From NCBI GenBank assembly GCA_006503475.1, contig RSEH01000144.1, positions 57,367 to 121,366 on the forward strand: DNA of 64,000 nt. The letters are read 5' to 3'. The notes beneath the pieces were generated by a model. It made no database searches. It saw nothing but the letters and a program-made list of their open reading frames with translations, and was not told the origin of the DNA. The first letter of the stretch is position 1. Each line of letters begins with the position of its first letter. Origin of the DNA: Stentor roeselii (lineage: Eukaryota > Ciliophora > Heterotrichea > Heterotrichida > Stentoridae). Of this stretch, positions 7,702-52,874 are shown piece after piece. Both the position numbers and the translations under genes were made by a program.

Positions 7702-8802
7702 TTAATAATCCTTTTCATCATGATTATAAGTAAAATCTTGGTACATATAAGAGCTTGAGTCTAATCCTGAAGTCAAAGTCTCATCGTAAGCAATATTAAT
7801 TTCCTTATCTTCAAAATACTTCGAATCAAAGGGTCCTTCTAATTTCGGTTTAAAAGGAGGCTTAACCAGTTTTTTATTCATCTTTTCCCAATCAACCCCA
7901 GTAAAAAACATATGATTCCGAATTATTTCAGAGTTTTCCAGTCTTTTTTTTGGCTAAATAATACATACATCTAAGGTCAGTAAATTTTCAATAAGATCAG
8001 CAGCAGCATTAGTGAGATATCCACTTATATCAACCTCCCGATTGATAATTTTCCTATAAACCTCTTCCTTATTTTCTGCCAAAAACGGTGATACACCAGT
8101 GATCATTTCAAATAGAAGAACTCCAAGACCCCAGTAGTCCACAGCTTTATTATATCCTTGATTAAGAATGATTTCAGGAGCCAGGTAAGAAGCAGTTCCA
8201 CAAAAAGTATAAGCTAGTGAGTTCGAGTCATCAATTCCTTCAGCGCTAAGTCCGAAGTCAGTAAGTTTTACATGTCCATTCTCATCAATGAGTATATTTT
8301 CCGGTTTCAAGTCACGATAAATAACTCCAACAGAATGAAGATAATCAATAGCTAAAAAGACTTCAGCAGCATAGAACCTTGCCTTATCTTCAGTGAACTT
8401 TCCACTTTTCCTCAGCTGTGCCAGCAAGTGTCCACCTTGCACGAACTCCATAACAATGAAAAGATGTTTATTATCCTGAAAGGTATATTTCAGCTCGACG
8501 ATGAAAGGCGATCTGGACTTCATCAAGATATTTTTTTCACTTATTGTATGAAATCTTTGCTTTTTCGCTTCCAAGTCTTTCTTTTTCAAAACTTTCATTG
8601 CGAATGACTCGCCGGTATCTTGCTTTTGAACTAAATAAACTTGGCTGTACTCACCCATTCCGATTCGACGAATTGGAATGAATCTGTTGTCATTCAACTT
8701 TATTGAATTTGGACTGTCTGATGATAGGATGTCTTGTAATGATGAACGATGAGGGCCGGTACTTGTGTCTGGAGGGCAACAACAGTTGCTGAAGTTTCCC
8801 AT
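7702..8802 (-). CDS. AGC-family protein kinase, predicted N-myristoylated, one intron
   Basis: Exons 8802-7969 and 7953-7702 are joined over a 15-nt intron, giving 361 residues. The splice restores LTLDPKKRLE, the expected end of an AGC catalytic core. Visible: glycine loop GMGEYSQV (48-55), lysine K70 in AMKV, YRDLKPEN (D164), DFG (182-184), activation loop TFCGTASYLAPE with a PDK1-type threonine, and a C-terminal tail with PPFKPKL and a hydrophobic motif ending DFTY, closer to S6K/SGK than to PKA's FTEF. The start MGNFSNCCC carries a myristoylation glycine and three cysteines suited to palmitoylation, so membrane anchoring is predicted. All catalytic residues are present. The tail hydrophobic motif has Tyr in place of the first Phe. 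Exact subfamily is uncertain. Confidence 0.93.
7954..7968 (-). other. 15-nt intron (AGC kinase)
   Basis: Minus-strand sequence GTATGTATTATTTAG. It carries the in-frame TAG that would otherwise end the kinase before its AGC tail. A is at position 10. Confidence 0.93.
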
Positions 8803-9122
8803 GAAATTATTTGGAGAAATTTAATGAATGCTTAGATTTATTAGGGATATTATGGATGTGGAAGATTTTTTTGGAAATATGAAAAAAGTGGATTCAATTG
8901 TTTTAGGAAATTTATTTCATGTGAAAATTTTTGGTTTTTGTTTGGGGTGTAGGTTTAATGTGGAGGAAATTGTTGAGTTTGAATTTAGTCAAGGTTTGAT
9001 ATTCAAGAGATTTTAATGATAGCAATATAAAATACCAGCTAAATTAAAATAATTCTATTGATCATGCCTCATCTTCAATAAAACTTCATCAACCAAAATA
9101 TCCAAAATAAAATTCATCTAAA
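8803..9122. other. Intergenic, 320 bp
   Basis: This lies upstream of the AGC kinase and downstream of the C2 protein gene, both minus strand. A 62-codon plus-strand frame at 8828-9016 has no recognisable features and is not called. Nothing else is seen. Confidence 0.5.
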
Positions 9123-9800: not shown

Positions 9801-9820
9801 GAGTTGGTTAAAAGTTATAA

Positions 9821-10033: not shown

Positions 10034-10074
10034 TAACTTTAGCTAGTTTACTCTTATTAAAGACTATTCAGACT

Positions 10075-10590: not shown

Positions 10591-10642
10591 TTTATTATAG
10601 TCTTGCTTCCAGTCAACTTCATTTCAAAGAATTCTCATAAAT

Positions 10643-13311: not shown

Positions 13312-15444
13312 TTATTCTCTAATTAAAGCCTTCCCTCCAAATGCGACACTTTTGAATTGAAGCACCGCGGAAGGAGAACTGATCTCAGCTAAGAGCTTTC
13401 CAGGTTCTTGTAACTTCAAAGTTTGCATTCTTCCAGATGAGTATTCAAATTCCCATGCGGAAATGTTGGCTTTTAATTGATTGACACAGTTTTCTTGGAT
13501 ATTCTTCGAGTCAAGCAGAGTGGAAACCAATTCAAAAAGGGGCAATGCGATGTTTTTCAAAAAGCCGATTTGGGACTTGGAAAAAATGGTTTTGTCTCGA
13601 TCACAGTACATTGAGACTGGCTTTTGACGGTCTTTTTCTATGTCTCCTTGGTGGAAGAACTCTTTGGATAAGAGCTTCGACCACTTTTTGTGGATGCGGG
13701 TTTCTTTGGCACTGTGACCGATATCTGCTGTGTGGATTATCATTTTTAGAAGGTCCAGGCGGACTTCAGGAGATTCGATGTCTTTTAGTTTTGAGGATTT
13801 GTTTCTTAGGTTTACGATCATTTCGAAGTGCTTTGCCATGTCAGTGGCCAGGATCATCTCAATCATCCACTTCCTAACTTTAACAACTTGCGCTTCTGAA
13901 AGATTCTCCAATATATTTTTATCACTTTCCTTTAAAATGCTAAAAGTAAGCGACGCATGAAAGTTTTCCAACACTGAAATATCATTATCTGTTTAAAAAT
14001 TACACCGAATAGCCAACTCATCACTGATATTAATAAGAAAACGATTATTGACTCCAGGGTGTCCGACATCATGTGTGAGATGCGAGAGAATAACAATAAG
14101 CATTTCAATATCAAGAAGATTTGAGAAGACCTCAGAGCTTTTCGTAAGGTAAAGTCCCGAAGACAGAACATCGGCAGCATGAATCGCATTGTGATACGGG
14201 TTATTTTTATACTGTTTTCCTATTTCATTGAAGAAAAAGGTGAGTTTTATCTCGTTGATATCAAGAGTTTCACATAAATTATAAAGTCTCATCGTGTACC
14301 TCCCAATGATGGTCACTGGAATGTCTCCAGACTTTTCACTGAACTCAAACATGTCGATAGTCCAGGTGTTAGACACTTGCTTTAAAATCACGACGACTTC
14401 TTGAGCTAACATCTTCTCTAAAATACTTTCAAGTGACTGTCGTTGTCGGAATTTTTTCTGTTTTGCTGGCTCGGAGATCTTATTTGGACGAATGTTTTGC
14501 ATGATGTACTCACGGTCTTCCTCGTCTAACTCGTTGTTAAGGTCGTCGAAGTCAGAGTCTTGGGAGGTCTGAATTGATTTAAGAGACGTTATCACTTTTC
14601 TCATTGTATCTTTCGAGGACTTTCCTAGTTCCAAAGATAAAGTTTGTAATATTTCAATACAGTCAGGAAGTTTCATTGATTTTTCCAGTTCCTCTAAAGA
14701 ACTTCTCCCGTTTTCATCAAATTTTGACTGAGTCGCGACGGTTTTTATGAATTTTTTTCGATCTTGCAGTTCTTGAAAGTAACTTCGAGAAACTTGATAA
14801 AGACTTACAAGGATCAACAGAAGATTTATCAAAATAACTGAACTAGAAGATGAGTAGTTTAAAGTCAAAACTGCGTGAAAAGTGCAGATCAGGACATTGA
14901 AGCTGAAAAGGACTAAAAAGTTGTAATGAAAATTTTCAGTACTGAATAGGATTAAGGCTGTTATTCCTAATGTGCTCAGGAAGGATTCGCCTTCAGTTTG
15001 AAATGTGTAGTGATGAAAGGCTTCGCTGTTGAAGATCAGGATTAAACTTGAGATGAAGTAGTTGATCTCGAATAAGTATTTTTTTTGGAGTGAATACTCG
15101 TGAATGCAAAAACGGAGAAATAGCAGACTGAAGTTAAATATGATTAGAAAACCTATCAATACTAAACGACATGCTAGACTTTTGTGGTTGGTACTCGAAT
15201 TTGAAAGTAAATAGCTTGCGAGTAAAATAAAAAATAATAGCAAATGGGAAAGGATGTATGGAAAGTGCAACTTGAATGAATTTGTTGTGGCTGTAGTTGA
15301 GAGTTGATGTAAAAGAAAATTTTCTTCTGTGATGGATGATTTAAATTTCAGACAGAAATAATTCAGGTTATAGTTTGCTCGATCGGTTGTAAGAGTTGGT
15401 ATTTGTATCACTTTCATGATTATTATAATTCTATTTTTATACAA
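13312..15444 (-). CDS. Membrane 3',5'-cyclic-nucleotide phosphodiesterase (PDE1/PDE4-like), one intron
   Basis: Exons 15444-14004 and 13988-13312 are joined over a 15-nt intron, giving 705 residues. Residues about 50-215 hold roughly six membrane segments (ILSHLLLFFILLASYLL, LVLIGFLIIFNFSLLFL and others), followed by a cytosolic linker and the PDE HD domain: HNAIHAADV (about 413), HDVGHPGVN (about 460), and after the splice KMIIHTADIGHSAKE, which resembles the PDE1 metal-ligand aspartate motif. The splice restores LAIRYNDISVLENFHA, a conserved PDE stretch. The enzyme should hydrolyse cAMP or cGMP at a membrane. No GAF, PAS or CNB domain is visible. Its location beside an AGC kinase fits cyclic-nucleotide signalling, but that link is inference. 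Stop TAA. Confidence 0.93.
13989..14003 (-). other. 15-nt intron (phosphodiesterase)
   Basis: Minus-strand sequence GTAATTTTTAAACAG with A at position 10. It interrupts the HD catalytic domain and contains the TAA that splits the frame. Confidence 0.93.
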
Positions 15445-17912: not shown

Positions 17913-17914
17913 AA

Positions 17915-18970
17915 ATGTCAGGAAAGAACTTCAAAGACCTTCTCGAAAACGCGAATAAAACGACCTGGTCACATAAAATCCTGAGTTTTTACAAAGAAAG
18001 TAAAAAGTTCCAATTTATATTCGCTGCTTTTATTGGAGGATTTTGCACTGTCACTTTTTTAAATACTTATCCTGGAAAAGCACTTCCAATGCAAAGTTTT
18101 TTCAAGTCAGTCGCGGCGAAGACTTTCTTTGAACTTCATTATTTAAGTACTTGAAATTCAGAAGCACTCGCATTGGACACTACCTCAAGTTGGACAAAAG
18201 TGATGAGGACTGCTGAAGGATATGCACTTAAATTGGGCAGAGATGTGAGGTTTATACAGAGAATTGAATATTGGGAGTTTTATTTGCAGTGCTTTGGACT
18301 AGTTGAAAAAACTTTAGATAGATCAAAAGATGACAAAAGTTTCTTTTTCTTTAGTCTTAGAAGTCTCGGAGTTTTTCTTGACCAGTTGTTAGAAATCGCT
18401 CCTGGATTTTCAAAAAATCAAGAAATTCGACTGGTTTTGATGAGAGTTTTAAGTAAAATCAAGGAACACTCGCAGTTTAAAGACAGGTTAAAAGAAACTT
18501 TCAGTATTTTTGAATGGAACAGTTTTTTTAACCTTTTTCTGATTGTCTGTCGTTTTGGAAATGAAGAGAAGATTGAAGGTTATAAGTGTTTAAAGCAAGT
18601 TGTTGTTAAACATCAGGGCTTGCTTGATGTCTTCTGTGAGGACCTGGTAAAAGAAAGGCTTTTTAGAGATTGTGTTGATTTGGATAAGGATGTCAGGACT
18701 TTAGCACTTGATATGATCTTAGTCGCTTGTGAAAGTGAGAGATGTAGAGAATGTTTTGTTAAAAGTCGACTTGTGTTCAATTTGTACACAAGAGTTTTGA
18801 TGATGGACTCTGGGAATCATAAGGTTGTTACTGAGATTGTTCAGAAGTTGACTTCAGATCGCAATGTCTGGCAGATGCCTGATGTTGCTGAGGAAAAGGA
18901 AAGAGTGGTTTTGTTAGCACTTCAGTCGGATGATCAGGATTTGAAGAAACTGGTGGAACTTATTAGGTAA
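17915..18970 (+). CDS. TM-anchored helical (ARM-like) protein, one intron
   Basis: Exons 17915-18146 and 18162-18970 are joined over a 15-nt intron, giving 346 residues. Without the splice the locus looks like a 79-residue peptide plus a frame lacking an upstream start. One membrane segment lies at about residues 33-50 (FIFAAFIGGFCTVTFL); the rest is helical with ARM/HEAT-like leucine spacing (LVLMRVLSKI, LALDMILVACESERC, VVTEIVQKL). An N-terminal anchor with ARM-like helices recalls ARMC10 and ARMCX proteins of the mitochondrial outer membrane, but that is a structural analogy only. The ATG lies 2 bp after the preceding stop codon, so a shared transcript is possible. Confidence 0.75.
18147..18161 (+). 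other. 15-nt intron (TM/helical protein)
   Basis: Sequence GTACTTGAAATTCAG with A at position 10. Its internal TGA ends the unspliced frame. Splicing keeps the phase into the 18162-18970 exon. Confidence 0.85.
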
Positions 18971-19310: not shown

Positions 19311-20557
19311 ATTCTTCCTAAGTTCCACACATTCCTCATCATCCTGCCATCAGGTTCAACAGTGATTCCAAGTCCATGTTTTTTTCCATTTTTCCAGCTA
19401 CCTTCAAAGACCCTTCCATTCTTCCAAACAAATTTCCCAAGTCCTTCCATATTTCCATTTTTCCATTCTCCCAAATACTCTCTTCCATCACGATACAAAT
19501 ACGTTCCAACTCCATTCATAGTATCTTCAGACCATTCCCCAAGATATTTATTTCCATTGCTCCAGACATACTCCCCGACGCCTTCCTTCAAATACTGTTT
19601 ATAAAAGCCAATAAACTGAGAGCCATCAGGCCATCTGCTGACTCCATATCCATGAGGATGATCGCCGAGCCACTGCCCAGCATAAGTGTTTCCGTTAGGC
19701 CAGGCCATTTTTCCACTTCCCTGACGAGTCTTCGCCAAAAGATCCCCTTGATACCTGCCTCCTTCCTTTACCACCTCTTCCTTAAACCTAAGCAAATTTT
19801 CAAGTCTTGACAAGTTTTCCTTAGTTTGTTTTAAAATTTTTCCTGACAGTTGAATTGACTTTTCGATGTACTCAAATGACTGAGGTTTTGACAAGGTTTT
19901 AGCTTCTGTTGTTTCTTGCTTGAAGTGAAGCCAGGCTGAATGACTTTTACCGAAGCCGTCTATGAAGAGACTTGAAGCGTCGAAGGATTTTGTGCTTGAG
20001 GTCAGACTGTCGTTGCACTGTGGGAAAGGATTGACCCACTTGCCTTCGAAGTGCTCGTTGTCGTGGTAAAGGAACTTGCCGTAGCCTTCTGGAAAGCCGA
20101 AGGACCAGTTGCCTTCATAAGAGCACCCGTCAGGCCAGAGCATTTTTCCGTAGCCGTCTCTGAAGCCTCCTTTGCATTCACCGTCAAATGTCTGCCCGTT
20201 CGGGTACTGGATTGTTCGCTTTTTCCTGCAGTTTATATAAAGTTTCTTGGATAAGGTAAAGGTGATGTCGTGGATTGGAAAGTACTTACTTGGAATTCGG
20301 GTTTCTCGAAGGACTTTTAAAGACTTTCTGCATTGGAAAAGCCTCCAGTTTCTTTGGATTAAAGAAATGTTTTCTAGTTTCAAGGATAAACCTTTTAAGT
20401 TCAACTCGCTGGTTCTTGCTAAAGAGTCCAGGTCTGAGTCTTGAAGTTTCTGATATGCGTTTAAAATGGCCTGAGTTTTGGTTACTTCTGATTCGAGGTT
20501 TGTTTCGATTCGGCCTTCGAAGTCTTCCATGCACCTTGAACAGCTTAGGTTTCCCAT
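19301..20557 (-). CDS. MORN-repeat protein with IQ-like motif, predicted N-myristoylated
   Basis: 418 residues starting MGNLSCSRC, a myristoylation site with two nearby cysteines. An IQ-like helix (ISLIQRNWRLFQCRKSL, about residues 62-78) may bind calmodulin. About three MORN repeats follow at 117-175 (YPNGQTFDGECKGG, GYGKMLWPDG, YEGNW), then a helical linker, then about six more from residue 270 to the end (MAWPNGNTYAGQW, YVWSNGNKYLGEW, YLYRDGREYLGEW, FVWKNGRVFEGSW). MORN repeats bind phospholipids or organise membrane-cortex junctions. Paired MORN blocks around a helical linker are visible. Its 3' flank is tandemly repeated (19003-19310). Single exon, stop TAA. Confidence 0.93.
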   Translation of the reverse strand: MGNLSCSRCMEDFEGRIETNLESEVTKTQAILNAYQKLQDSDLDSLARTSELNLKGLSLKLENISLIQRNWRLFQCRKSLKVLRETRIPSKYFPIHDITFTLSKKLYINCRKKRTIQYPNGQTFDGECKGGFRDGYGKMLWPDGCSYEGNWSFGFPEGYGKFLYHDNEHFEGKWVNPFPQCNDSLTSSTKSFDASSLFIDGFGKSHSAWLHFKQETTEAKTLSKPQSFEYIEKSIQLSGKILKQTKENLSRLENLLRFKEEVVKEGGRYQGDLLAKTRQGSGKMAWPNGNTYAGQWLGDHPHGYGVSRWPDGSQFIGFYKQYLKEGVGEYVWSNGNKYLGEWSEDTMNGVGTYLYRDGREYLGEWKNGNMEGLGKFVWKNGRVFEGSWKNGKKHGLGITVEPDGRMMRNVWNLGRITD

Positions 20558-37607: not shown

Positions 37608-40253
37608 ATGGAGCAGAAAGAGTTTTCAATCCGAGGCATGACCTGCACAAACTGTTCAAACACGATTTCGAAGTAACCCTCACTCAGTGGTCTAAGCAAA
37701 AGAAAAGATCTAAAAGAAGTCTCAGTATGTCTAATCTCCGAGAAGTTGATAGTAAAAGGAGAAAACCTCGATTCTGATTCAATAATCGAGTTAATCGAAA
37801 TGTTAGGTTTTGAGGTAAAATCCAATCAGGCTTCAGAAATAAAGCATTCAAAAATAACATCTGAAGTCCGATTACGACTCAGCAGAACTCTCAACTCAGG
37901 ACTGCCTGTCTTGGCGATTGCAGGTCTTTTGACTGTGAATGTGGAAGAACCGGACCTGCTGTACTTGAAGTTTGACCCAGAGCAGGTCTCGGCAAGGCTG
38001 TTGGCTTATATGGTTGAGGATCGACTGAAGTGCACCGTCAAACTCCATCAAGACTGTCCTTCTGACTCTGATTTGGTGGCGAAGCAGAAAGTTCATATGG
38101 ATGAATGGGTTAAAGAGTTTGGACTTAGTCTCTTGTTTACATTGCCTATCTTTATACTTACTATGATTGTCACGGCTTTTGTTAGCTCTCAAACTCTGGC
38201 TAGTCAAACTTGTGCTGGAAGGCTCCCTTGGTTTAACCTTGCTGTTTGGATCTTAGCGGTTCCGGTCCAGTTTTACTTTGGAAAGAGGTTTTATAGAGGG
38301 GCTTATAAAGCATTGAAGAACTGGTCAACCAACATGGACGTTCTAATCGTTTTAGGCACATCCTCAGCCTTCGCATACGGTACAATAATGAACCTAATGC
38401 TTCTCTTAAGCCTTGTAGGTTCCGATGACAACTCAATGTCTCTAATCGAGCCGAGTCACAGTTTCGAGACTTCCTCTCTTTTAATATCCATAGTTCTTCT
38501 CGGAAAGTACCTTGAAGCGAAATCAAAGCACCGAACAACCGACGCGATAACAAATCTTGCAAAGTTAAAAATATCCGACGCGATTTGCCTCGAAAGCGGC
38601 ATCGAAAGAAAGACGGACATCGACTTGCTCCACCCAGGGTGCATAGTAAAAGTTTACCCAGGCTCCTCCATCCCGGCAGACGGCGTCGTCATCGACGGAG
38701 AAGGCTGGGTGAACGAGTCCATGATGACCGGCGAGGGCAACCTGGTGAAAAAGTCCCAAGACGCCTTCGTCTTCGGAGGAACCATTTGCAACAAGGGCTC
38801 AATTCACGTGAAAATCACAAAAACCGGAGAAAACACGGCATTGAGCCAAATAATCAAATTAGTTGAAAATGCGCAGTCAACAAAACCACCTATTCAAGCT
38901 TACGCTGATAAAATCTCAGGAGTTTTCGTGCCTTTTGTCTTGATCTTCGCATGTGTCACGTGGATTGTTTGGTTTTCGCTGATTTACTCTGATAATGAAT
39001 GGATCCTTGAGATTATTGAGGCAAGGAAAGAGTCGAAGTTTATTTTTGGGTTTAACTTTGGAATCAGTGTACTTGTCATCGCTTGCCCCTGCGCTTTGGG
39101 CCTTGCAACACCCACGGCTGTTATGGTTGCCACTGGCGTCGCTGCACGATTCGGGATTTTAGTGAAAGGTGGAGAGGTGCTTGAGTCAGCTTCTAATATC
39201 AAGACTATTGTTTTTGATAAAACTGGAACACTTACACAGGGAAAGCTCAGAGTGAAGAACTTGGTTTGTTTCACTGATCATTTCACTGAAGAAGAAATTA
39301 AGTCTTTTATTGTGTCTGTTGAAAGCCAAAGTGAACATCTTATTGCCAAAGCGATTTCTTCTTTCATCTCTGAACCGCCATGCGCTTGTCTTAAGTTTGA
39401 AAACCTCGAAGGTCAGGGGGTTTCTGGAATTATTCGCTGGAAGGGGAAAGACTTAAGTGTCTTAATCGGAAATCAAACTCTTTTACTCAACCAGAAAGTC
39501 CAAATCAGCCCTTCAGATCTGGAAAAGTACAAAAGTTTCGAAAATGAAGGAAAAACCACTGTTTTCGTCGCGGTTCAGAAAAAAGTCTCTGCAATTCTCG
39601 CTGTCAGTGAAAGTGAACTTGCGAAACCAGAAGCTCCTTGGGTGATCGACACCCTTCAGAAAAAGGGTTACAGTGTTTGGATCATCACTGGGGACAACAG
39701 GTCTTCCGCTGTGAAAATCGCGAATTATTTAAAAATTCCTGAAGACCAGGTTATAGCGAATTGTTATCCAGGAGATAAAAGAGCGAAAGTAGAGTCTTTA
39801 CAAGGCAAGAATAAAGGAGTGTCTTTTGTCAACTCAAGTCTTAACTCGACTGAAGCCACTGTCTTAGTCGCCAGTGGATCTTCTGGAGGCGTCATGTTTG
39901 TAGGAGATGGAATTAACGACTCCCCTTCTCTGGCGCAGGCTGATATTGGAATCGCTATTGGAGGAACTGATATTGCAAATGATGCTGCTGGAGTCGTTTT
40001 GTTGAAGAATAACTTGAAAGATGTTTTAACTACTTTGGACTTGTCGAAGAAAACTTTGAAGAAAATCAAGTGGAACTTCTTTTGGGCTTTTGTTTATAAT
40101 GTTTGTGGAATACCTCTCGCTGCTGGAGCGCTTTATCCTTGGATGAGTGTTAATATTACCACTGAAATGGCAGCCGCTGCCATGGCTTGCAGCTCGACTG
40201 CTGTTGTCTTGTCGTCTTTACTGCTTAATCGATATAGAGAGCCGAGTAGTTAG
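37608..40253 (+). CDS. P1B-type copper-transporting ATPase, one intron
   Basis: Exons 37608-37672 and 37688-40253 are joined over a 15-nt intron, giving 876 residues. The short first exon supplies the metal-binding GMTCTNCSNTIS of an N-terminal HMA domain; a second HMA-like region lacks the CxxC. Membrane and catalytic motifs: TGEG, CPCALGLATP (about 487), DKTGTLTQG (phosphorylated Asp about 532), TGDNRSS and GDGINDSP (about 761). The CPC transport site indicates Cu+ export into the secretory pathway or out of the cell, as in ATP7/CopA. The nucleotide-binding SEHP motif reads SEHL, keeping His but losing Pro. The stop TAG overlaps the stop of the next, opposite gene. Confidence 0.95.
37673..37687 (+). 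other. 15-nt intron (copper ATPase)
   Basis: Sequence GTAACCCTCACTCAG with A at position 10. It splits the first HMA domain just after the CxxC motif and contains the TAA. Confidence 0.94.
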
Positions 40254-41339: not shown

Positions 41340-42338
41340 ATGAAGGAGGAAATCGAAAAACATTCAGTTAAAGTTCTTATTGAAAAATATGCTTTAAACT
41401 CAATCAAACACCAAGAACTCGATAAAGACTCAAGGTTCACCTTTCTAAGAGATCAGCTTTTGATTCAATACAGAAAACTTTATCTTTCAACTGAAAATAC
41501 TTCAGATAATCTGAAATCAACTATTAACAAAAATCTTATCTGTTCTTTACAAGAGCTTCTTCTTGAGACTGTTTTCACTCCGAAGCTTGAGGACCAACTC
41601 ATGATGCTTGATAAAGTTTATAAATGGTTCACATCTAAAACAAACCAATTCCCTGTCAGACCCATTCAGCCTCTTGCGCAGATTCAAGAACTGCCGAGAT
41701 TAGAACTGAGAAGCAGAAATAAGTCACTTCCATTTGTTGTTACTTCTAAATCACCACAAATAAGGAACATTCCTCTCACGTTTCCTAAAAGATCAAAGAA
41801 AAAATCGAAGGATGATATAATTGCTGGAATTGAATCTAGGTACTTTTCGATGCTTAATAATGAAAAAATCGAGTTAAGAACAACTGAAAATAGAAGAAGT
41901 AATGCTCCAATAAGACCGAAAACTCCTATGTTACTTGAAGAACCCATTGAAGATACTAACCAGTTCTCCAAAAAGCCAAGTAAAACACCTGACTTAGAAA
42001 AATTTTCAGAAGAAAACATGAGAACTCCAAGTATAGATTTTCGTACCTTCAACCTTAAGTTCCGAAATATGTCTGGAATCGACAAGACTAAAATTTTTAA
42101 CGGCCCATCTATAAAAGATTTACAACAGGTCCAAAGCATGAAAGGGAAACTTGCAAAAATGAAAGTAAAAGCAAACGTTAAAGAAATCGAAAGTGCTGAA
42201 GTTTTTCAAAGAACCATTCAAGACGATGAAGTCTTTTTAAAAAATTTGCCGATTGGAGGAGAAATGCTTCTCAGAAAGCCTAAAAAGAAGAAAAAATCGT
42301 CGATGAAAAGTACTAAAATGAGTGGATTTTTTAACTGA
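41340..42338 (+). CDS. Hypothetical protein, paralog A of a tail-to-tail pair
   Basis: 332 residues, function unknown. The N-terminal 100 residues are helical (FLRDQLLIQYRKLYL, then LICSLQELLLETV and KVYKWFTSK), the middle is polar and likely disordered, and the C-terminal 60 residues hold KGKLAKMKVKANVKEIE, LPIGGEMLLRKP and a lysine-rich end. The same order of helical head, disordered middle, (L)P-x-GGE-x-LL motif and basic tail appears in the protein encoded convergently at 42369-43550, so the two are paralogs facing each other with a 30-bp gap. A microtubule- or nucleic-acid-binding tail is possible but unproven. Single exon, stop TGA. Confidence 0.75.
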   Translation: MKEEIEKHSVKVLIEKYALNSIKHQELDKDSRFTFLRDQLLIQYRKLYLSTENTSDNLKSTINKNLICSLQELLLETVFTPKLEDQLMMLDKVYKWFTSKTNQFPVRPIQPLAQIQELPRLELRSRNKSLPFVVTSKSPQIRNIPLTFPKRSKKKSKDDIIAGIESRYFSMLNNEKIELRTTENRRSNAPIRPKTPMLLEEPIEDTNQFSKKPSKTPDLEKFSEENMRTPSIDFRTFNLKFRNMSGIDKTKIFNGPSIKDLQQVQSMKGKLAKMKVKANVKEIESAEVFQRTIQDDEVFLKNLPIGGEMLLRKPKKKKKSSMKSTKMSGFFN

Positions 42339-42368: not shown

Positions 42369-43550
42369 TTAACCTTTTTTAGATTTCTTCTTTTTGGATT
42401 TTTTCTTTGATTTTGACTTCACTTGAACAAATGGATTTATCAATAATGACTCACCACCTGATGGAAGGAATTTTGATAGTTCTTGAACTTTTGTTTGAGC
42501 ATCGATTATTCCTAGCTCGAGTTCTCTTAAGTCACTTTTGATCCCTTTTCGTGCTAGTTTGCTCTTGATTGAAAATAATTCATTCATTTTTTCTCTACCC
42601 ATTCCTGGACTAGTTGAAGGACTAACAAAATCTGGTAAATCATCAAGTCCTTCTTTCCTCTTCTTCGGAATCTGTTCAATATCAATAACTTTTTGCCTAA
42701 TCTTCCTCAAAACTCCCGGCCTCGAAAACATTCCATACTTTTCCTCACTTTCCTCAGAATCAAAACTTTTTTCCGCTTTATTCGATTTGGAAAAATCAAC
42801 AAGAGTAGAATTAAGTTGATCATGAGTATCACTAGCAAAAGAAAACGACGCAATTTCCCTTCGAATATTCAAATTTTCCATTCTTTGACTTTTAAATTCA
42901 CTCCACTCTTGAATCCTTCCTACTTAAACATTACTTTCTCTGTACTTCCCAAGATTTAATCGTTGTGCCTGCCGTTCTTGAAGAGCTTGAAAGTATTTAT
43001 CAAGGCGAGCTTCGATTTCAGGGTCGACAGGAGGAATCGGGTTGACATAAGCTTGATAAGTCGTTTTAAGTCCAACGTTCAGAGTTCTCGGTTGAGGGGT
43101 GCTTGTCTTGCTTTTGTTGAAAGAATCTGCAGCTGTAGACCGCATGGAAAGCGTCACTGCTCGTGATTTTTGAATCGGCTCTGTTGACGTCGCTTTTGCA
43201 GGATAAAGACTTGTTGGCTTCGCAGGGGTTATTTTGCTGTAAAACCACTTCGAAATCTTTGATAAAAGTTTCAACTGAAGACCTTTGTCTGTTGTGTAAA
43301 CGGCCTCGGATAGAAGAGAGTAAAGGGAAGAGTAAAGAACTTCTTTCCACTTTGTTGCTTGAAGACCTTCGCATTTCTCTTGGTAAAAATGCTCTAGGTG
43401 CCCACGGAGATCGATAAAACTTGCTTGGGTCTCGAGGAAGGGATTTCGCAATGTTTCTAGGGTTTCTAGAGATTTTATTGAAGTTTGAGGCTTTTCTAGG
43501 GTTTTTAGTTGCTGGATTGCAAGACTTTGACCTAGCAGGTGATAATCCAT
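42369..43550 (-). CDS. Hypothetical protein, paralog B of a tail-to-tail pair, one intron
   Basis: Exons 43550-42935 and 42919-42369 are joined over a 15-nt intron, giving 388 residues. The N-terminal helical region (SLYSLLSEAVYTTDKG, KLLSKISKWFYSKI) matches the head of paralog A (DKVYKWFTSK), and the C-terminus (KSKLARKGIKSDLREL, then LPSGGESLL and a lysine-rich tail) matches its end. The splice runs from KYRES to RRIQEWSEF in frame. The second half contains acidic and serine-rich linkers. Function is unknown. Paralog A has no intron at the equivalent place, so an intron was gained or lost since duplication, if the alignment holds. Confidence 0.78.
42920..42934 (-). other. 15-nt intron (paralog B)
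   Basis: Minus-strand sequence GTAATGTTTAAGTAG with A at position 10. Its TAA ends the unspliced first frame. Confidence 0.88.
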
Positions 43551-43843: not shown

Positions 43844-44935
43844 ATGGAAGAACTTCAACAATTCGACTCAATATCATCAGAGCTGCTAAACCTGGATATC
43901 GAAATCGACGCAAAGCAACTCGAATACCAAAGAGCCCTCGAAGTTCTCTACCAGACCCTATCAGTCCAAGTTCAAGAAGCGCTTCTATCTCTTCCCTGTC
44001 AAACCGATTCAACTTTATTATCTTCCATAGAAGAAACCCAGAAGTTCTTATCAGCGCATCACACATATTCAGACCCAGAGATGATCCAATACCTTGGCTC
44101 AGGCCTGACCAAGAGCTTTCAAGAGTTCCACTGGAAAGACTACTTAAAACAAAAGTAACCTTTACCTAGTCTTCAAAAGCGATGGTCTTCTCTAGTTTCC
44201 GACTTATCAACACAAAAAGCTTCTTCTTACTTCTCAAAAATCGACGAATTAATCAGCTCGACTTATCTTTCACTTCAAAAACTTCTTCAGACTCTTCATG
44301 ATTTATTCCAAACAACTCCAATAAAATACAATATTTTCCCTCAAGTTACTATTTTCGACAGTTTTTTCAATGAAAAAAATCTAGAGTTTCGACAAAAGAC
44401 GAAAAAACTTAAACTTCAATTAAAGTTCTGCCCTGGAGTTGAGCCCCCGACAATAAAAAGAGTTCAATACGAGACTTTCACCGTTGTAAAGAAGAACTTT
44501 ACAGAGTGGAACACGTTTACTGAAGAGGAGTTGATAGAAGTAGAAAAAGCTCCAGCTTGCACTATGGTTCCTTTGGTTCATCGCTTTTTCAGCATGTTCA
44601 CTGATAGGTACCTGGCTGTCGCTTCTTATTACGCCCCTGTCGGCTGGGAGGTCACTCGTGTTGATGCTTTTGTGATCGACGGGTTTTTTAAAGAGTGCAA
44701 TGTGAAAAGAACGGTTTGTAGAGAAAATAAGGCCTTGGTTGAAATTGAAGTCGTTTATCCCAGAGTTGTTAGGGAAAATATTTGGTGTCGGGTTAAGTTG
44801 GAAGGAGTTATTTCTAGGAAAAGGATTCTTGATGTTCGTGTACCTCATATCAAGGATGTACTGGTTGTTGTTGATGAAAACGGAGAACATGAATTACCTG
44901 ATGGAGTGATTGACTTTGATGATATTGAGATTTAA
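43844..44935 (+). CDS. Hypothetical protein with helical N-half and beta-rich C-half, one intron
   Basis: Exons 43844-44154 and 44170-44935 are joined over a 15-nt intron, giving 358 residues. The frame is open across the splice for 255 further codons, much longer than the ATG-started piece beginning at 44531. Residues 1-220 are helical and Ser/Gln/Leu-rich (EALLSLPCQTDSTLL, ISSTYLSLQKLLQTL); residues 230-358 are beta-rich with an acidic end (VIDFDDIEI). No known domain, signal peptide or membrane segment was recognised. Confidence 0.75.
44155..44169 (+). other. 15-nt intron (hypothetical protein)
   Basis: Sequence GTAACCTTTACCTAG with A at position 10. It contains the TAA after YLKQK and joins to a 255-codon open frame. 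Confidence 0.88.
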
Positions 44936-45485: not shown

Positions 45486-46397
45486 ATGATACCTCGATAT
45501 GCCACACCTACTAAATCAAGCAAACTTTACACTTATACCAATAATGACCAAGACCTTGTCAAACTGGCTTTTCGAGGGGGAAACTTCACGTTTTTGAAGA
45601 AATTCCCTGCGAAAATCAAGCCTTTTGCATTAACTGCAAGTTTGAATGAGCTAAGCAAGAGAAATCTCCTAAAAACTCCTCGGTCAGTTTCAGTGAAAAC
45701 CCCTAAAAACTACCCGTGGATGCCAGATTCCTTCGAAAACAAGTTCAAAGTGACCAGCCAGATGCGAGCTGAAAGTATCAGGAAGAGAAACATGATCAGC
45801 AAAAGAGACTTCGTGTGCAGCGGTACTCCAACTCACGGCCGTTCCAACCAACGAGGTTTCATTTCAATCAACTCTTCATACTCATCAGCATCTGAGCATT
45901 CAGAGAGGCTCAAGTGGATAAAAGACTCTAAAGTCAAGCATGGAAATTTCAGAATAGGAAAACCTGAGATAGGCCCCAAGTCTCCTCTTTCCGCGCAGGA
46001 AATCATCACCAGGATCAGAGTTCGACTCACTGAAGATTGGAAATCTTCCAGTTTTGACATCGGCATGAATGACTTGAAATGCATCGAAATCAGGTTTTTC
46101 TTGAAATCTGTTGAAAACTGTGAAACGATGAACTTTTATATGAATACTCTTGTCAATAAAAATCAGGAGTTTTTGAAGTATTGCTTGAAAAAAGTACCTC
46201 ATCAGTGGGGGTTGAGAAATGGAAAGTTTTTAGTTTTTGTTTTGGCACCTGCTTGGGTCACTCTTCCGAAGATATCTGGGATTGTTAGCAAAGGTTTGAA
46301 GAATAGTGTTGCGAGGAGATTAGCTTTGATTAGCACGAGAAATAGCAGTATGTCTATTCGTAATTGTAAGTAAGTTCAAGTTAGAGAGATGGTTTGA
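45486..46397 (+). CDS. Hypothetical basic protein; possible short terminal exon
   Basis: The unspliced frame is 45486-46373 (295 residues, TAA). A candidate 15-nt intron at 46370-46384 (GTAAGTTCAAGTTAG, A at position 10) would change the end to NCKEMV and the stop to TGA at 46395-46397. Both forms are possible; RNA reads would decide. The protein is rich in Lys, Arg and Ser with repeated SP/TP sites (MIPRYATPTKSSK, LLKTPRSVSVKTPKNYPW), and a more ordered C-terminal half (EIITRIRVRLTEDWK, LKCIEIRFFLKSVEN). I do not recognise a family. Confidence 0.65.
46370..46384 (+). other. Candidate 15-nt intron
   Basis: Sequence GTAAGTTCAAGTTAG fits the window consensus, including A at position 10, but removal only changes the last few residues of the hypothetical protein, so coding evidence is weak. 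Confidence 0.45.
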
Positions 46398-46477: not shown

Positions 46478-47269
46478 CTATCCAGAAAACTTCAAAGGTG
46501 CATACCTTAGGCGATTAACGATATCAGCTCCTGGTACTTCTCCATACAAAGTCTGAATGATGTTAAAGACCATGAAATCAATTCCCTTAGACTGATACTG
46601 TGTTCCATAATTAGGAATAACAATATCAGTATAAACTTTCCCCTAAATAAATTTCACAGGTTCAACAAATCGTTCATGAGCGATTTTGGTATACTTCAAA
46701 TAATACTCAATGACAAACTCCATAGGCATTCCAATTTCCTTCGTAAACTTCCTAACACGGTGTCCAAGTCTCACATCATCAGGACACTCCACAAATAATT
46801 TATAGTCAAAGCATCTTCTTATCTCTTCCTTGTAAAACACGAAGAGTCCTTCAACAATAATGACAGGAGTAGGAAAGACTTTGATACTTTTTTTCAGTTT
46901 ATGGTTAAGCATGTCATATTGAGGACACTCGAAAGTCTTTTTATTGTTCAAAGAGTCCAGACAGTTCTTGAACAACGCCCAGTCAATACAGTCAGGGTTG
47001 TCGAAATTGTCCTCTGACGTCATGTCTGGGAAGTAAAAGTCGAACTCGTTGATGACAGTTGCGGAAAAGTCAAGACTCACTTTCAGCTTTTCTGTGATTT
47101 GGGATTTTCCGGAACAGCTCCCTCCACAAATCCCGATAATGAATGGCTGCTTGCTCAGAGTTCGAACTGATTGCAAGGAAAATCCAGATGTCAGGCCGAG
47201 TGATAAGGGCATGTTCGGAGTGATGCTTGGAGAGTAAAAAGCGTGATTGACTGGACTGAACTGTTCCAT
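46478..47269 (-). CDS. Uridine kinase, one intron
   Basis: Exons 47269-46658 and 46642-46478 are joined over a 15-nt intron, giving 258 residues. The P-loop GICGGSCSGKS lies at about residues 46-56. The acidic NEFDFYFPD replaces the more usual DSFY-type catalytic loop; IIVEGLFVFY and GHRVRKF follow as in uridine-cytidine kinases. The second exon supplies KVYTDIVIPNYG, the conserved C-terminal ADIVIP region, which supports the splice. The enzyme phosphorylates uridine or cytidine with ATP or GTP in pyrimidine salvage. A 40-residue N-terminal extension has no recognised domain. Stop TAG. Confidence 0.9.
46643..46657 (-). other. 15-nt intron (uridine kinase)
   Basis: Minus-strand sequence GTGAAATTTATTTAG, the only one starting GTG rather than GTA. 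A is at position 10. Phase 0, between GAA CCT and GGG AAA. Confidence 0.92.
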
Positions 47270-47351
47270 TATTATTGGATTTTTATGGGCTTGGATTGGG
47301 AAGAGAAAGTTTAAATTTTGATTTGAAAGATTTGGAAATTTAGGGATAATA

Positions 47352-50300
47352 ATGGTTTTTTACCTTGTTGCATTAAAACTGGCTCTTGTTGTAGGACAGA
47401 CTTGCTCTCCTGAAGTGATTACTTTTTCTCAAAGTGTCGATTCAGAGGACTTTGAAAGTCCTTTTAGAGATTTTAACTGTCCTAGGACTAATCTACAGCT
47501 GGTTGAAGGGAATTTTAAGTTAAAAAATTCAGTTTTTTTGAATATGAACCTTGTGGCCAGCGAAAAACTTGTGATTGAAGGGATTTTATGTCAGGGTGGA
47601 GTGACTGCGAACTGCTACCCAGCTGGAACAAGGCCGATTATTCTTCTTCAAAATGTTGAAGTGCAACTTTCGATGACAGCTCCGACAGTATTCAGAAATG
47701 TCAAGTTTAGTCATCAGTTTCCATTCAAGTTAGGATGTGAATCATGCACTTACTGCCCTTCGGTCACTCAAAGTGGCTTAGATGTGATTAATGATCGTGG
47801 CGAAGTTTTGGTAAGTTCTCAGTATCTTAATTCTTCTTACTGTGAACCTTTTAATAGAATCAACTTTTTAACGAGTCGAGTTTCGATTGAACTTGAAAAT
47901 GTTTCTTTTTCTGACTTTAGGATGGGATTTAAGAGCATTCTTTTCATTGAAACAGGAAAAGCTGTTATGAAAAAAGTTGAATTTTCGAATATTATTGTAA
48001 AAGTTTCTGCTATTCTTTCAGGAACTCACTTCATTGATTCTGTTGTCTATGAAGGAGGATTTGTAGAATTACTGAATAATGGATTTGAAATCGATACAAA
48101 TTTGGTATTAGGGAATTTCTTGACTCTTGATAAAGTCACGGATTTTAGGATGAAAGGCTTGGAAATGAAAAACAATATTTATTCAGGCAACTCAAACTTG
48201 ATTCAATTAAATAATATAAAAAATTTGATGATTGGAGACTGCAAATTTTCTCTTAATATTGTGAATGGAAATTTGATAAAAGCTTCTCAGGAGGGTCTCA
48301 AATTGGTTGATCATGATCATAATTCAAGTTTTGTTATCAGAAATTTAAGTTTTTCTGAAAGTATGGCTAATAACTTTATAGAAATCAAGTATGATACCAG
48401 TTTTCAGACTGTACTTATTGATAACTGCAGCTTTACAAACAGTGTTTTGAATGCAGCAGCTATATCGACTAGCTCAAATTTATATGACTTTTCTCTAGAT
48501 CCTCATAATATCCTTGATTTCAACCTCTCAAACTTGCTTTGTCGAGAAAATTACAGTCCTTTTCAAATAAGTATTTCACAGTTGAAGAAAGTTAGCTTGT
48601 TTGGGTTGAAAATAGAGGAAAATTACATAAAAAATGATTTAGGCATCAAGATAGCAAATGAAATGATGAAAGATGAAAGAGTTTATTTTAAAAAAGTGTA
48701 CAATCCAATTTTACCTTCATCTTCATTGACTTCAATTATTTTACTGTATTTTAGGAAAATAGATTTATTTTATATTGAAAACTTAAACATCGTAAATAAT
48801 TACGGATCAGTTTTATTTGCTGATATGATTTCAATTATTTATATAAAAAACTTAATCAGTTTATCAAATATTGCATCAAACTATCATTTGTTTTACTTTT
48901 ACTTACTATATCAAAGTTCACTAGATGATATAAACCTGCTAAACAATAGTATAACTGATACAAAGTACTCTTTAATGTCAATAAAAACTCATACAAGTTT
49001 ACTGCAAATGAATATAACCAACTCATTTTTGCATAATTCTAATGGTTCTATTCTTGTTGAATCATGCAAGTCAATTAATATTGATAATTTTACTGTTTTC
49101 AACTCATCCACTCCAACAAACTCCTACTTAAAATTGAAGTTTGTTGATGATTCCTCGTTTTCTCTAAAAAATTCAATATTTTTAAATAACTCGGATGATG
49201 TTTTGAGTCTTGGGTCATCCATATCAACTATAAAAGTTGATATTTTGATTGAAAATATTACAATAAAGAACTCAAAAGGATCACTAGGAATGATACAATT
49301 TGAAAATTCATTATTTTTATATGATGATCGAAACAGTTTCATAAGAAATTCAAGATTTGAAAAACTTTCAGGAATTATTATATCGATTCTATCTTATAAA
49401 GGAAATGTTCAAATAATAAATTGCAACTTTTCAGAGAATACAGGAAGTTCAGTTAATATTTTTATTGCATCATCCTCAAATATAACAATAAATGCCTCTA
49501 AATTCATTAATTCTCTTACTTCATCAATTTCTTTCCAGAAAGCATCTGATTATAACACTTTAACAACAAATAACTGTTTGTTTTCAAATATTTCGAATAC
49601 AATGATCTCAATCTCTTTAAGTAATTACACTGATTATGCATCAACTTTTGAGTCTAACCAAGGTCTTTTAATATCTGGAAGTGCTGGGTCAGGTTTGAAA
49701 TTCATCTCATCAAAAATTATTCGAAATATTAACCTTTCCTCTCTTTTCTACTGCATCTTTTATTCCCACCTGATATTACTTGATGTGATTTTTGACTCAA
49801 ATGAATCTCTTCATAAGTCAATAATTTTTATAGAAAACGAATCCTATTTGCAAATGAACAATACTCTTTTCATCAACAATACAGGGTACAGAGGTTCAGT
49901 GCTTTTCATTCAGCACTCACCTAGTTATTTGAGCAGCATTAACTCCTCCACATTCAAACTCAACCACGCGATTCTAACAAATACAATTTTTTTGTTAGAA
50001 TCAAACCTGAGTATCGATCACAGTGATTTCATCGAAAACTACTCGAATGACTCAGCAGGAGTTCATTTGACTTATGAGTCCTTTTTCAAACTCAGCAACT
50101 CGAGGTTCATTGGACATGTCGGGGAATATTCTTGCATCAGAGCAGAAGACAGCAGTAGTGTTGAGGTTTATTACAGTGAATTTTTGAATAGTTCTGAAGA
50201 CTCTTCAGGAACTTTAATTAAAACAAGTGAAAGTTACTTTAAATGTCTTGGATGCAAGTTTTCAAGGATTACTTTAGACAGTGGAAATTTAATTTATTCT

Positions 50301-52874
50301 TGGGACTCGTAAGAAATAAACAGGTTTTTAGAATTTTTTCACATGGATCTTGTGGATGTGAAAGTTGATAAGTCTTTTGGATTGATTTACTTGAGTTTTG
50401 CTTCGATGTGCTTTGGTCATCGAGTTTTTGTGCAGAATTTCACTGGTACAGCTTTTTATAATGATCTTTACTCGACACTTGTGCTCAATGACTCAATTAT
50501 TCGATGTATGGAGTAAGTAGATGGAATTTCTGAAGCTGGAACTGGAATTATCTGTAAGATTTGCTTGAAGATTAGTTTGAATCTTGTTAATTTTGATTCA
50601 CTTACAGCTGAAACTGATGGGGGATGCTTGTATTCGTATCAGGATAGGTATGGACTAATCAATTATGTTAATTCATCGAGTTTCAATTCGTGTGTCGGTC
50701 AGAATGGAGGATCTTTGATGCTATTAGACTCCTCCTACAATATCGATAACTCAACCTTTACTTCAAACCATGCCATTTCAGTAAACAGTCAAGGAGGATC
50801 AATATTCCAATCAAATATCGAAATTACCTCATCACTGACCATCTCCTCATCAACCTTCAAAAACAACTCAGCAGTTCAAAGTGGAGGAGCGATTCAATGG
50901 TATTCCTCGAAACCTGACTTAAAATCGCTAAATTTTTCATCAAACAAAGCTTTTTACGGTCCGGACCTAGGATCATTCACAGAATCTCTTCATCTTCAAG
51001 GTTCATCTCGTTCCCTTTCAAGCCAAATCTTTCCTCCAGGGGAGCCAAGCCCATCTCCATTAAAAGTTGACCTGAAAGACCACTACAACCAGACAGTTCT
51101 AACAGACAACTCAACAAAACTAATTCTTTATTCAAAAAACCCATCCTTCCAAATACAAGGCCAGTTCATCTCTCAAGCCTCGGAAGGTTCAGTCGAATTT
51201 TCCGATATCAAGATTTTCGGAACTCCAAAAAGCGAATCTCAAATTTTGATAACCACTGAATCAAACAACAATCATTTCACTTCAGAACTGGAAATTGAGT
51301 TCGTGCTTAGAGAATGTGTTGCTGGTGAACAACTCGTTCAAGGGATTCATTGTGAAAAGTGTAAAAATGACTCTTATAGTTTAAAACCTGGGAAGAAATG
51401 TTTGAGTTGTCCTGAGGGGGGTGTGTGTTTTGGAGCTGATTTTATTTTTGCTAATCCTGGATTTTGGAGAAGAAATAACAGGACTGATAAGATTTTTAAG
51501 TGTTTTAATGAAAAGGCTTGCCTTGGAGACTATAACTCGTCTAAGTGTGAAAAAGGGTATAAAGGGAACCTCTGTCAAGTTTGCAGTCAGGGCTTTTCTA
51601 CTTCTCAGGGAAATGAATGTAATGAGTGTCTTGACAAGGATTTAAATATCGGCAGAATAATCACAATTTTAATTCTTGTTGCAGGATTTTTAGCTTTTCA
51701 AAGCTACTCTACTATTCAAGCAGTTTATAAAGAAAGGTCAGTCACTTCGGTTTATTTGAAGATCCTCGTTAATTACCTGCAACTTGTTTCGCTTACGATA
51801 GGATTCGAGTTGGATTGGCCGAGACTGGTTAAGAAGTTATTCGCAGTGCAAGAAAAAGCATCTTCTAGTTCAGACCAGTTCATTTCATTTGACTGTTTCT
51901 TATCACATTATTACAACCCTTTCTTTTCAAAGGTGTTAATCATTTCGTTGACTCCTGTGATCTGTTTGACCTGCAGCATGATTTTTTGGCTTCTGTGGAA
52001 AAAAGTTAAACATTCAGAGAAGGTCATGGAAAAGTTTATTGGGACTGTCATTGTTCAGTTGTTTTTCTTTTACCCTTCACTTATCAGACTTGACTTTCTC
52101 ACGTTTTTTTGCACTGAACTGGAAAAGGATAATTTTTATTTGACTAGTTATATGAATATCCACTGCTGGAAGTCAACTCATTTGATTTTTACTTTAACCG
52201 TTGCACTTCCAAGTATTGTTACTTTTTGTATCAGTTTTCCTTTGGTTCTTCTGGTTTCTTTAAGGAAAAACAGTGAAAATCTGCAGGATGAAAGTCAAAA
52301 GTTGAAATATGGGTTTCTTTATAATGGCTTTTCAGATAAGTTTTATTATTGGGAGTTTTTGGTTATTTTGAGGAAATTGCTAATTATTATATTTTTTGTG
52401 TTTTTTTCAAGGATTTCTGTTCCTATTCAAGCTTTGTGCACTTTTGTTGTTATTCTGATCAGCTTCTTACTGCAGCTTAGATTCCAGCCTTATATCAACA
52501 GCCAGTTGAATACTCTTGAATTGATGTCTATACTGGTGACTGCTGTTACCATCTACTCAGGAATCTTTTTTCTCACTGGAGATCTTTCAGAAGAAGCGAA
52601 AATTATTGTTTTCGTTCTGATGGTTCTAAGTAATTTTATATTTTTAGCATTTTGGATATATCTCACTTTTGCATTCTTTTTTTCTAAGCTCTACTTGAAG
52701 ACTAGAATCTGCAGGAGAGTCTTTAAGGGAAGGTTTGACCGCTGGGCAACTAAAATTCATCCTGTAACTCAGATGGATGAGAAAAAAAACAAATCATCTG
52801 TCATTTTCTATGAGAATAAATCTTGTTTCAAAGAGCCCACTCTAGTTGATGTTTCTCCCGAAAGGATTAATTAA
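47352..52874 (+). CDS. Beta-helix ectodomain multi-pass membrane protein, two introns
   Basis: Exons 47352-50308, 50324-50505 and 50521-52874 are joined over two 15-nt introns, giving 1830 residues. A signal peptide (MVFYLVALKLALVVGQ) leads into about 1200 residues of short Asn/Ser/Ile-rich strands with many N-x-S/T sites, the pattern of right-handed parallel beta-helices (pectin-lyase-like). A cysteine-rich segment at about 1310-1420 (CEKCKNDSYSL, CLSCPEGGVCFG, GFWRRNN, GYKGNLCQVC) precedes about eight membrane segments from 1424 to 1780. This architecture is known in ciliates and oomycetes as large surface proteins of unknown function. Without the splices the locus looks like two genes, and the middle exon is otherwise invisible. 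Confidence 0.88.
50309..50323 (+). other. 15-nt intron 1 (beta-helix protein)
   Basis: Sequence GTAAGAAATAAACAG with A at position 10. It contains the TAA that would end the first exon. Confidence 0.9.
50506..50520 (+). other. 15-nt intron 2 (beta-helix protein)
   Basis: Sequence GTATGGAGTAAGTAG with A at position 10. It joins a 182-bp exon in frame to the 2354-bp last exon. Confidence 0.88.

What the first reader, a model, noticed from the sequence alone, without database searches (positions are those of the whole stretch)
7954..50520. All introns are 15 nt with an invariant A at position 10
Twelve firm introns and one candidate (13 of 13) are exactly 15 nt, start GT, end YAG, and carry A at position 10, leaving 5 nt to the 3' splice site. 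Position 9 is mostly a pyrimidine. Fifteen-nt introns are known in heterotrichs; seen directly here is the fixed A10, the likely branch point. Its distance from both ends would force an unusually tight spliceosome. Three introns end phase-0 or mid-codon and nearly all contain an in-frame stop, so retained introns would truncate.
Basis: partly seen in the sequence, partly recalled or inferred. Interest (0 to 1): 0.7.

Follow-up and report, generated by a model that had tools for sequence, protein, structure and literature searches.

The report
Fixed branch adenosine in 15-nt introns
The protein genes in this ciliate-like genome are interrupted by introns of 15 letters with an adenine at letter 10, the known minimal-intron design of Stentor-type ciliates; the less expected part is that a protein thought to measure the distance to the intron end appears here without its measuring loop.

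Summary
A gene decoder told nothing about position 10 called 48 introns of 15 nt in 353,552 bases of this genome; 48 of 48 carry A10, including 22 of 22 in phase 0, where A10 cannot belong to an in-frame stop. With length free (9-60 nt), 22 of 58 GT-AG calls were 15 nt, against 0-2 for seven decoy border pairs. Genome-wide, GTA..A..YAG occurs 10,648 times at 15-nt spacing and 5,484-6,958 times at 13, 16 and 18 nt. This is known in kind: Stentor coeruleus has A10 in 8,005 of 8,173 15-nt introns (PMC9505925). The in-frame-stop remark is largely ascertainment: 15 is a multiple of 3, so stopless introns are invisible to an ORF reader. New here: Slu7 and a Prp18-like protein, listed N/A in S. coeruleus, are both present. 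The Prp18-like protein keeps its SFM motif and the segments flanking the conserved loop but lacks the loop, which in yeast lies near the 3' splice site; yeast Prp18 is proposed to set a minimum branch-to-3'SS distance. A10 leaves 5 nt, below yeast's natural 10. U2 pairing around A10 is no better than shuffled, so spacing, not sequence, seems to place the branch.

The parts
7954..7968 (-). 15-nt intron, phase 0, in-frame stop, protein kinase gene 7702-8802
   Evidence: Pfam Pkinase 230.8 bits for the form stopped in the intron, 243.2 spliced; profile end 247 to 261
13989..14003 (-). 15-nt intron, phase 1, in-frame stop, cyclic nucleotide phosphodiesterase gene 13312-15417
   Evidence: PDEase_I 59.5 bits cut at the junction, 252.4 spliced; profile end 64 to 233
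18147..18161 (+). 15-nt intron, phase 1, in-frame stop
35720..35734 (+). 15-nt intron, phase 2, in-frame stop, small CxC..CKH (SWIM-like by eye) protein gene 35625-36071
   Evidence: found only with the permissive masked-PWM and the full-PWM decodes
36980..36994 (+). 15-nt intron, phase 0, in-frame stop, casein-kinase-1-like gene 36074-37102 (name by eye)
37673..37687 (+). 15-nt intron, phase 2, in-frame stop, inside the heavy-metal-associated domain of a P-type ATPase gene 37608-40253 (ATPase by eye)
   Evidence: the spliced HMA domain matches profile 2-62 across the junction (unspliced form not scored). The uniform-length decode called a 30-nt intron from the same 5' end
42920..42934 (-). 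15-nt intron, phase 1, in-frame stop
   Evidence: the uniform-length decode called a 12-nt intron from the same 5' end
44155..44169 (+). 15-nt intron, phase 2, in-frame stop
46370..46384 (+). 15-nt intron, phase 2, in-frame stop, adds a short last exon; weakest of the twelve
   Evidence: splicing gain only 1.7 log units; permissive PWM decodes only
46643..46657 (-). 15-nt intron, phase 0, in-frame stop, uridine-kinase-family gene 46478-47269
   Evidence: PRK 71.0 bits cut at the junction, 83.7 spliced; profile end 178 to 193
50309..50323 (+). 15-nt intron, phase 2, in-frame stop, gene 47352-52874
50506..50520 (+). 15-nt intron, phase 1, in-frame stop, gene 47352-52874
   Evidence: the uniform-length decode called a 12-nt intron from the same 5' end
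18245..18259 (+). candidate 15-nt intron without in-frame stop
   Evidence: both masked and the full PWM decodes
19936..19950 (-). candidate 15-nt intron without in-frame stop, MORN-repeat-like gene 19301-20557 (name by eye)
   Evidence: permissive masked and full PWM decodes
20471..20485 (-). candidate 15-nt intron without in-frame stop, same gene
   Evidence: permissive masked and full PWM decodes
35683..35697 (+). candidate 15-nt intron without in-frame stop, SWIM-like gene
   Evidence: permissive masked and full PWM decodes
35943..35957 (+). candidate 15-nt intron without in-frame stop, between CxC and CKH of the SWIM-like protein
   Evidence: Pfam finds no domain in either form, so homology does not decide
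37815..37829 (+). candidate 15-nt intron without in-frame stop, at the end of the HMA domain
   Evidence: HMA 37.7 bits spliced, 37.6 retained, not informative
41655..41669 (+). candidate 15-nt intron without in-frame stop
   Evidence: permissive masked and full PWM decodes
49899..49913 (+). candidate 15-nt intron without in-frame stop
   Evidence: permissive masked and full PWM decodes

Best explanation
These are U2-type spliceosomal introns at the minimal size known from heterotrich ciliates. Letters 1-4 (mostly GTAA) are the 5' splice site, A10 is the branch adenosine and 13-15 (YAG) the 3' splice site, so the lariat is a 10-nt ring with a 5-nt tail. The branch is placed by fixed distance, mainly to the 3' end, and not by base-pairing with U2: A10 is practically without exception, the letters around it pair with U2 no better than shuffled letters, and in S. 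coeruleus the A moves to 11 in most 16-nt introns. Shown here: length, A10, U1, U2 and U6 genes with intact recognition sequences, Slu7 present, a Prp18-like protein without its conserved loop. Inferred: that A10 is the branch, that geometry selects it, that the spliceosome is adapted to it.
For: 48 of 48 A10 in introns called without using position 10; phase 0 alone 22 of 22. Length spike at 15 only, decoys flat. Genome-wide 10,648 matches at 15 nt against 5,533 at the same-frame 18-nt spacing. Three of the 12 firm window introns, chosen because they lie in a Pfam domain, were compared as spliced and as stopped at the intron; in all three the downstream exon continues the domain. U2, U6 and U1, one match each above the Rfam cut-off, with intact GUAGUA, ACAGAGA and ACUUACCUG. 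All three stop codons end long ORFs, TGA in 12 of 107. U2 pairing at A10: 133 pairs against 136.7 +/- 7.5 in shuffles. S. coeruleus: A10 in 8,005 of 8,173 15-nt and A11 in 442 of 633 16-nt introns (PMC9505925).
Against: No RNA reads and no lariat evidence. A10 could serve another 3' splice site step. With lengths 12-21 competing, 1 of 46 15-nt calls lacks A10; at the most permissive masked decode 5 of 66. The tool's own control for the pattern counts, the pattern read backwards, is as frequent as the 15-nt pattern (10,180 against 10,648); it contains ATG and exceeds the forward count at 13, 16 and 18 nt, so I used the other spacings as background instead. Y9 (41 of 48) is unexplained. Introns without in-frame stops are under-sampled, so a stopless class without A10 could be missed.
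Confidence: 0.88

Rival explanations
1. A10 is real but is not the branch: it is an A at -6 needed for 3' splice site recognition, and branching uses another A.
For: U2 complementarity is not centred on A10; a branch at 7 or 11 would allow more pairs on average (3.96 and 3.54 of 6 against 2.77), though for 7 this counts letters of the fixed 5' splice site.
Against: No other position from 6 to 13 has an invariant A: the next highest is A11 with 20 of 48. A branch is obligatory (established knowledge) and only A10 is practically always available.
Confidence: 0.08
2. A10 is a side effect of how introns were found or of selection for in-frame stops.
For: All 37 introns of the first set have an in-frame stop, since a 3n intron is seen only if it breaks the frame; in phases 1 and 2 A10 can be part of a stop.
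Against: In phase 0, A10 is the first letter of a codon, and stops start with T; A10 is still 22 of 22. The decoder used no information on position 10.
Confidence: 0.02
3. The 15-nt insertions are not introns but residual DNA elements or assembly errors.
For: Ciliates do remove DNA segments during development (established knowledge).
Against: GT..AG borders at 15 nt with decoy borders flat, A10 in all 48, snRNA genes present, thousands of excess matches genome-wide.
Confidence: 0.02

Closest known systems
Stentor coeruleus 15-nt introns (Slabodnick 2017, known here only through citations; PMC9505925)
   Same: 15 nt, GT..AG, A10, AT-rich; conserved U1, U2 and U6 recognition sequences
   Different: No 16-nt class detected here (7.2% in S. 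coeruleus); Slu7 and a Prp18-like protein found here with profile searches, listed N/A there with BLAST
Blepharisma stoltei 15/16-nt introns (PMC9942806, passages)
   Same: Tiny, predominantly 15 and 16 bp introns, compact AT-rich genome of 41 Mbp
   Different: B. stoltei reads UGA as tryptophan; here UGA behaves as a stop
Yeast Prp18 and its loop-deletion allele (PMC10711555, passages; PDB 1dvk, 5mps)
   Same: The L037 protein keeps an SFM-type motif and the segments flanking the conserved loop
   Different: The loop is naturally missing here; yeast Prp18 has it, and the shortest natural yeast branch-to-3'SS distance is 10 nt against 5 here
Loxodes magnus introns (PMC11441545, passages)
   Same: Very short ciliate introns
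   Different: Mode 17 bp with a spread; below 16 bp negligible

Membership tests
U2-type spliceosomal introns | GT..AG borders | tested here: met
   Length spike at 15 nt only with GT..AG, not with decoys
U2-type spliceosomal introns | U1, U2 and U6 snRNA genes with intact recognition sequences | tested here: met
   U4, U5 and the minor-spliceosome snRNAs not searched
U2-type spliceosomal introns | Removed from RNA through a lariat | not testable with these tools
   No RNA data
U2-type spliceosomal introns | Branch region complementary to U2 (typical, not defining) | tested here: not met
   133 pairs against 136.7 +/- 7.5 in shuffles; 1,406 of 2,000 shuffles as high. S. coeruleus branch regions also lack a strong consensus (PMC9505925)
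Heterotrich (S. coeruleus type) tiny introns | 15 nt with A10 | tested here: met
   48 of 48; 45 of 46 with lengths 12-21 competing
Heterotrich (S. coeruleus type) tiny introns | Minor class of 16 nt with A11 | tested here: inconclusive
   8 calls at 16 nt against decoys 4-12; no pattern excess; about 4 expected
Heterotrich (S. coeruleus type) tiny introns | Organism is a heterotrich | not tested
Prp18 (protein at L037) | N-terminal SFM motif | tested here: met
   PF08799 35.7 bits, cut-off 25; PDB 2dk4, Pre-mRNA-splicing factor 18, weak, E 0.015
Prp18 (protein at L037) | Prp18 helical domain | tested here: inconclusive
   PF02840 24.2 bits, E 3.9e-5, cut-off 32.5, profile 29-85 of 143 only; 35.7 bits with neighbours in the genome search; the domain part alone finds no Prp18 in PDB
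Prp18 (protein at L037) | Conserved-region loop, IGNxxWPIGVTxVGIHAR | tested here: not met
   20 alignment columns missing between aligned flanks; motif not in other frames of the locus. Hence called Prp18-like, not a full Prp18

The most novel reading that the evidence does not exclude
The minimal intron and the spliceosome evolved together: loss of the Prp18 conserved loop removed the device that forbids a 3' splice site close to the branch, which let every intron settle at a 5-nt branch-to-3'SS distance and freed branch choice from U2 pairing. This genome would then carry, as its normal state, the counterpart of the yeast Prp18 loop-deletion allele.
Probability: 0.3. Interest if true: 0.75.

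Novelty: new member of a known kind. Interest (0 to 1): 0.45.

Why it matters
How a spliceosome can branch and ligate inside 15 nucleotides is an open mechanical question. That turns a vague steric problem into a test that can be done in yeast and by comparing ciliate genomes.

Tried and rejected
Loss of Slu7 and Prp18 as the explanation: expected from the N/A entries in Table 1 of PMC9505925, rejected because Slu7 is clear (120.9 bits) and a Prp18-like gene exists. Published divergence of the Isy1 N-terminus: here residues from 11 on align with residue 6 on of PDB isy-1 (8ro0) and, by the table, of ISY1 in 5lj3 and 5gmk, so about 5 residues are extra; with 6ff7 the match starts only at 33. 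Partly agreeing with print. Cwc25 plug: a Cir_N match of 49.2 bits exists but its letters could not be read. U2 pairing as what fixes A10: rejected. Avoidance of the motif in exons: not seen. Homology test of stopless introns: uninformative for the two tried of eight. The first strict decoder settings found only 2 introns in the window, one of them 15 nt, and were replaced by a lower intron penalty. Seeming 21-nt introns: 6 of 7 coincide with or overlap 15-nt calls. The motif at 34325-34339 (-) with a large score change is an overlap artefact of two neighbouring genes. Papers looked at and not used: PMC7859197, PMC9942856 and PMC11651659 (passages).
Full report
Setting. TAA, TAG and TGA end 59, 36 and 12 of 107 ORFs of at least 250 aa, and the coding signal per codon is lower after each than before, most clearly after TGA, so the standard code is used. 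Blepharisma stoltei, with 41 Mbp and 66% AT, reads UGA as tryptophan (PMC9942806, passages), so this is not that species. I did not identify the organism; that it is a heterotrich is inferred from its introns.

Observation. I wrote a gene decoder with a codon model trained on 107 long ORFs of the sample. With intron length free between 9 and 60 nt, a uniform length prior and no sequence model except GT..AG, it called 58 introns in 286,456 bases, 22 of them 15 nt; no other length exceeded 4. With seven decoy border pairs it called 40-58 'introns', 0-2 of them at 15 nt. One length at a time, 15 nt gave 37 calls against 2, 2 and 2 for three decoys, and on the enlarged set of 41 sequences, 353,552 bases, 48 calls against 2-3 for five decoys. 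Lengths 12-14 and 16-20 stayed within the decoy range; 21 nt gave 7 against 2-5, but 4 of the 7 share their 3' end with a 15-nt call, 2 overlap one and 1 is independent. All 48 carry A at position 10, 45 end YAG, 44 begin GTA; 47 of the 48 are distinct. Exceptions appear only when the search is loosened: with lengths 12-21 competing freely, 46 calls are 15 nt and 45 have A10; with a position-weight matrix masked at position 10, 46 of 46 calls have A10 at the stricter setting and 61 of 66 at the looser.

Not a by-product of stop selection. A 15-nt intron does not shift the frame, so an ORF-based search sees only those with a stop; all 37 of the first set have one. In phases 1 and 2, A10 can be part of a stop; in phase 0 it cannot, because it is the first letter of a codon. 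Phase 0 gives 22 of 22.

Window introns. For three of the twelve that lie in a Pfam domain, the spliced protein was compared with the protein stopped in the intron (kinase) or cut at the junction (phosphodiesterase, uridine kinase): 243.2 against 230.8 bits, 252.4 against 59.5, 83.7 against 71.0, the matches running on across the junction. For the two stopless candidates tested by splicing against retention the result was uninformative (HMA 37.7 and 37.6; the SWIM-like protein had no match in either form).

Genome scale. The pattern GTA-A-NN-YAG occurs 10,648 times with 15-nt spacing, 5,533 times at 18 nt, which has the same relation to the reading frame, 5,484 at 16 nt and 6,958 at 13 nt. Depending on which spacing is taken as background, 3,700 to 5,200 are in excess at 15 nt, a rough guide to the number of introns. 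No excess at 16 nt is visible. The tool's own control, the pattern read backwards, gives 10,180 for 15 nt and 11,027, 13,723 and 13,514 for 18, 16 and 13 nt; it contains ATG and so is a poor background, but the ratio forward to backward is 1.05 at 15 nt and 0.40-0.52 at the others. In 160 ORFs of at least 200 aa, GTAA..A..YAG occurs 10 times at 15 nt and on average 4.0 times at six other multiples of three from 12 to 30; with GTA it is 15 against 10.5, with GT alone 72 against 65.6 over the five such multiples listed. So some stopless introns may be hidden inside ORFs, but the sign is weak.

Prior knowledge. PMC9505925 (abstract, Results and Discussion in full, first part of the figures and tables) reports for Stentor coeruleus 8,806 introns, 8,173 of 15 nt and 633 of 16 nt, A10 in 8,005 and A11 in 442, a lariat of 10-11 nt with a 5-nt tail, conserved snRNAs, and altered Cwc25 and Isy1 N-termini as a possible way round a steric clash. 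PMC10946202 (passages) credits Slabodnick 2017 with the branch-point suggestion; that paper is not held. The finding is therefore known in kind.

What places the branch. U1, U2 and U6 give one match each, above the Rfam cut-off and with intact recognition sequences. Around A10 the introns form 133 of 288 possible pairs with the U2 branch-recognition sequence; shuffling letters 5-9, 11 and 12 within introns gives 136.7 +/- 7.5, and 1,406 of 2,000 shuffles do as well. Position 9 is a pyrimidine in 41 of 48, which disfavours U2 pairing there. So the branch seems to be chosen by spacing. That in S. coeruleus the A is at 11 in most 16-nt introns suggests that the distance to the 3' end is the one held fixed.

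Step-two factors. Table 1 of PMC9505925 lists Slu7 and Prp18 as N/A by BLASTP and TBLASTN. In this genome Slu7 is plain: PF11708 120.9 bits, SLU7 in PDB 5xjc at E 2.7e-37. A single Prp18-like gene is at L037 754-1803: SFM-type motif (PF08799, 35.7 bits) and part of the Prp18 domain (PF02840, 24.2 bits by hmmscan, below the cut-off of 32.5; 35.7 with neighbours in the genome search), matched at profile positions 29-85 of 143 only. Its domain part alone finds no Prp18 chain in PDB, so the kinship rests on the motif, the partial domain and the order of the two. Two other weak hits of the genome search look like a Sec31-type protein and a coiled coil, by eye. Aligned with PRP18 of PDB 1dvk (yeast, by recall; letters), a Prp18 chain of 9if7 and a typed human-like fragment, the segments before and after the loop match, while 20 columns are missing: IGNVAWPIGVT and ARSAHSKIQ of 1dvk, with SLTSFH standing against SVGIH. 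No other frame of the locus encodes the motif; a loose motif search over all held loci gave five hits, none in L037 and all chance-like by eye. The yeast loop-deletion allele described in PMC10711555 removes S187-I211, which by the numbering is this same loop.

Why that could matter. [quoted passage not shown] By its counting rule A10 gives 5 nt. PMC8022279 (passages) states that the loop stabilises the docked 3' splice site. A Prp18-like protein without the loop is what a spliceosome with a 5-nt distance might need. This is a coincidence in one genome: no other ciliate could be examined here, and since Prp18 is dispensable at short distances the loop may simply have decayed afterwards, or be missing in all ciliates. 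One search for papers naming Prp18 with ciliates listed 15 of 937 papers; in that listing Prp18 is counted only in PMC9505925 and PMC12862383, and in the latter only in the reference list. I did not see the other 922.

Verdict. Observation confirmed; interpretation mostly right but already published for Stentor; the stop-codon remark is largely ascertainment; the loop-less Prp18-like protein is the part worth following.

Noticed in passing
L037 754-1803 (+): The Prp18-like protein carries a long run of near-identical NNTLExK repeats before its SFM-type motif.
   Followed up: no
window 41340-42338 (+) and 42369-43550 (-): Two neighbouring genes on opposite strands share a similar C-terminal part (SKLA..LP.GGE.LL..P), which looks like a local duplication; judged by eye from the translations.
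   Followed up: no
window 35625-36071 (+): A 133-aa protein with a CxC..CKH pattern (SWIM-like by eye) would hold three 15-nt introns; Pfam has no match.
   Followed up: partly
window 27960-34592 (+) and 34589-35620 (-): Two convergent ORFs overlap by 4 bases at their stop codons.
   Followed up: no
window 7900-8900: The stretch holding the protein kinase gene has 34 further partial DNA matches in the genome, 65-90% identical (a lower bound by the tool's note), so the family is large.
   Followed up: no
L040 1417-2079 (-): Isy1 has about 5 extra residues at its N-terminus compared with PDB isy-1 of 8ro0 and ISY1 of 5lj3, in line with the divergence published for S. coeruleus.
   Followed up: partly
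48 introns of the sample: Position 9 is a pyrimidine in 41 of 48, more than the intron interior would give (p = 0.0002); no explanation.
   Followed up: partly
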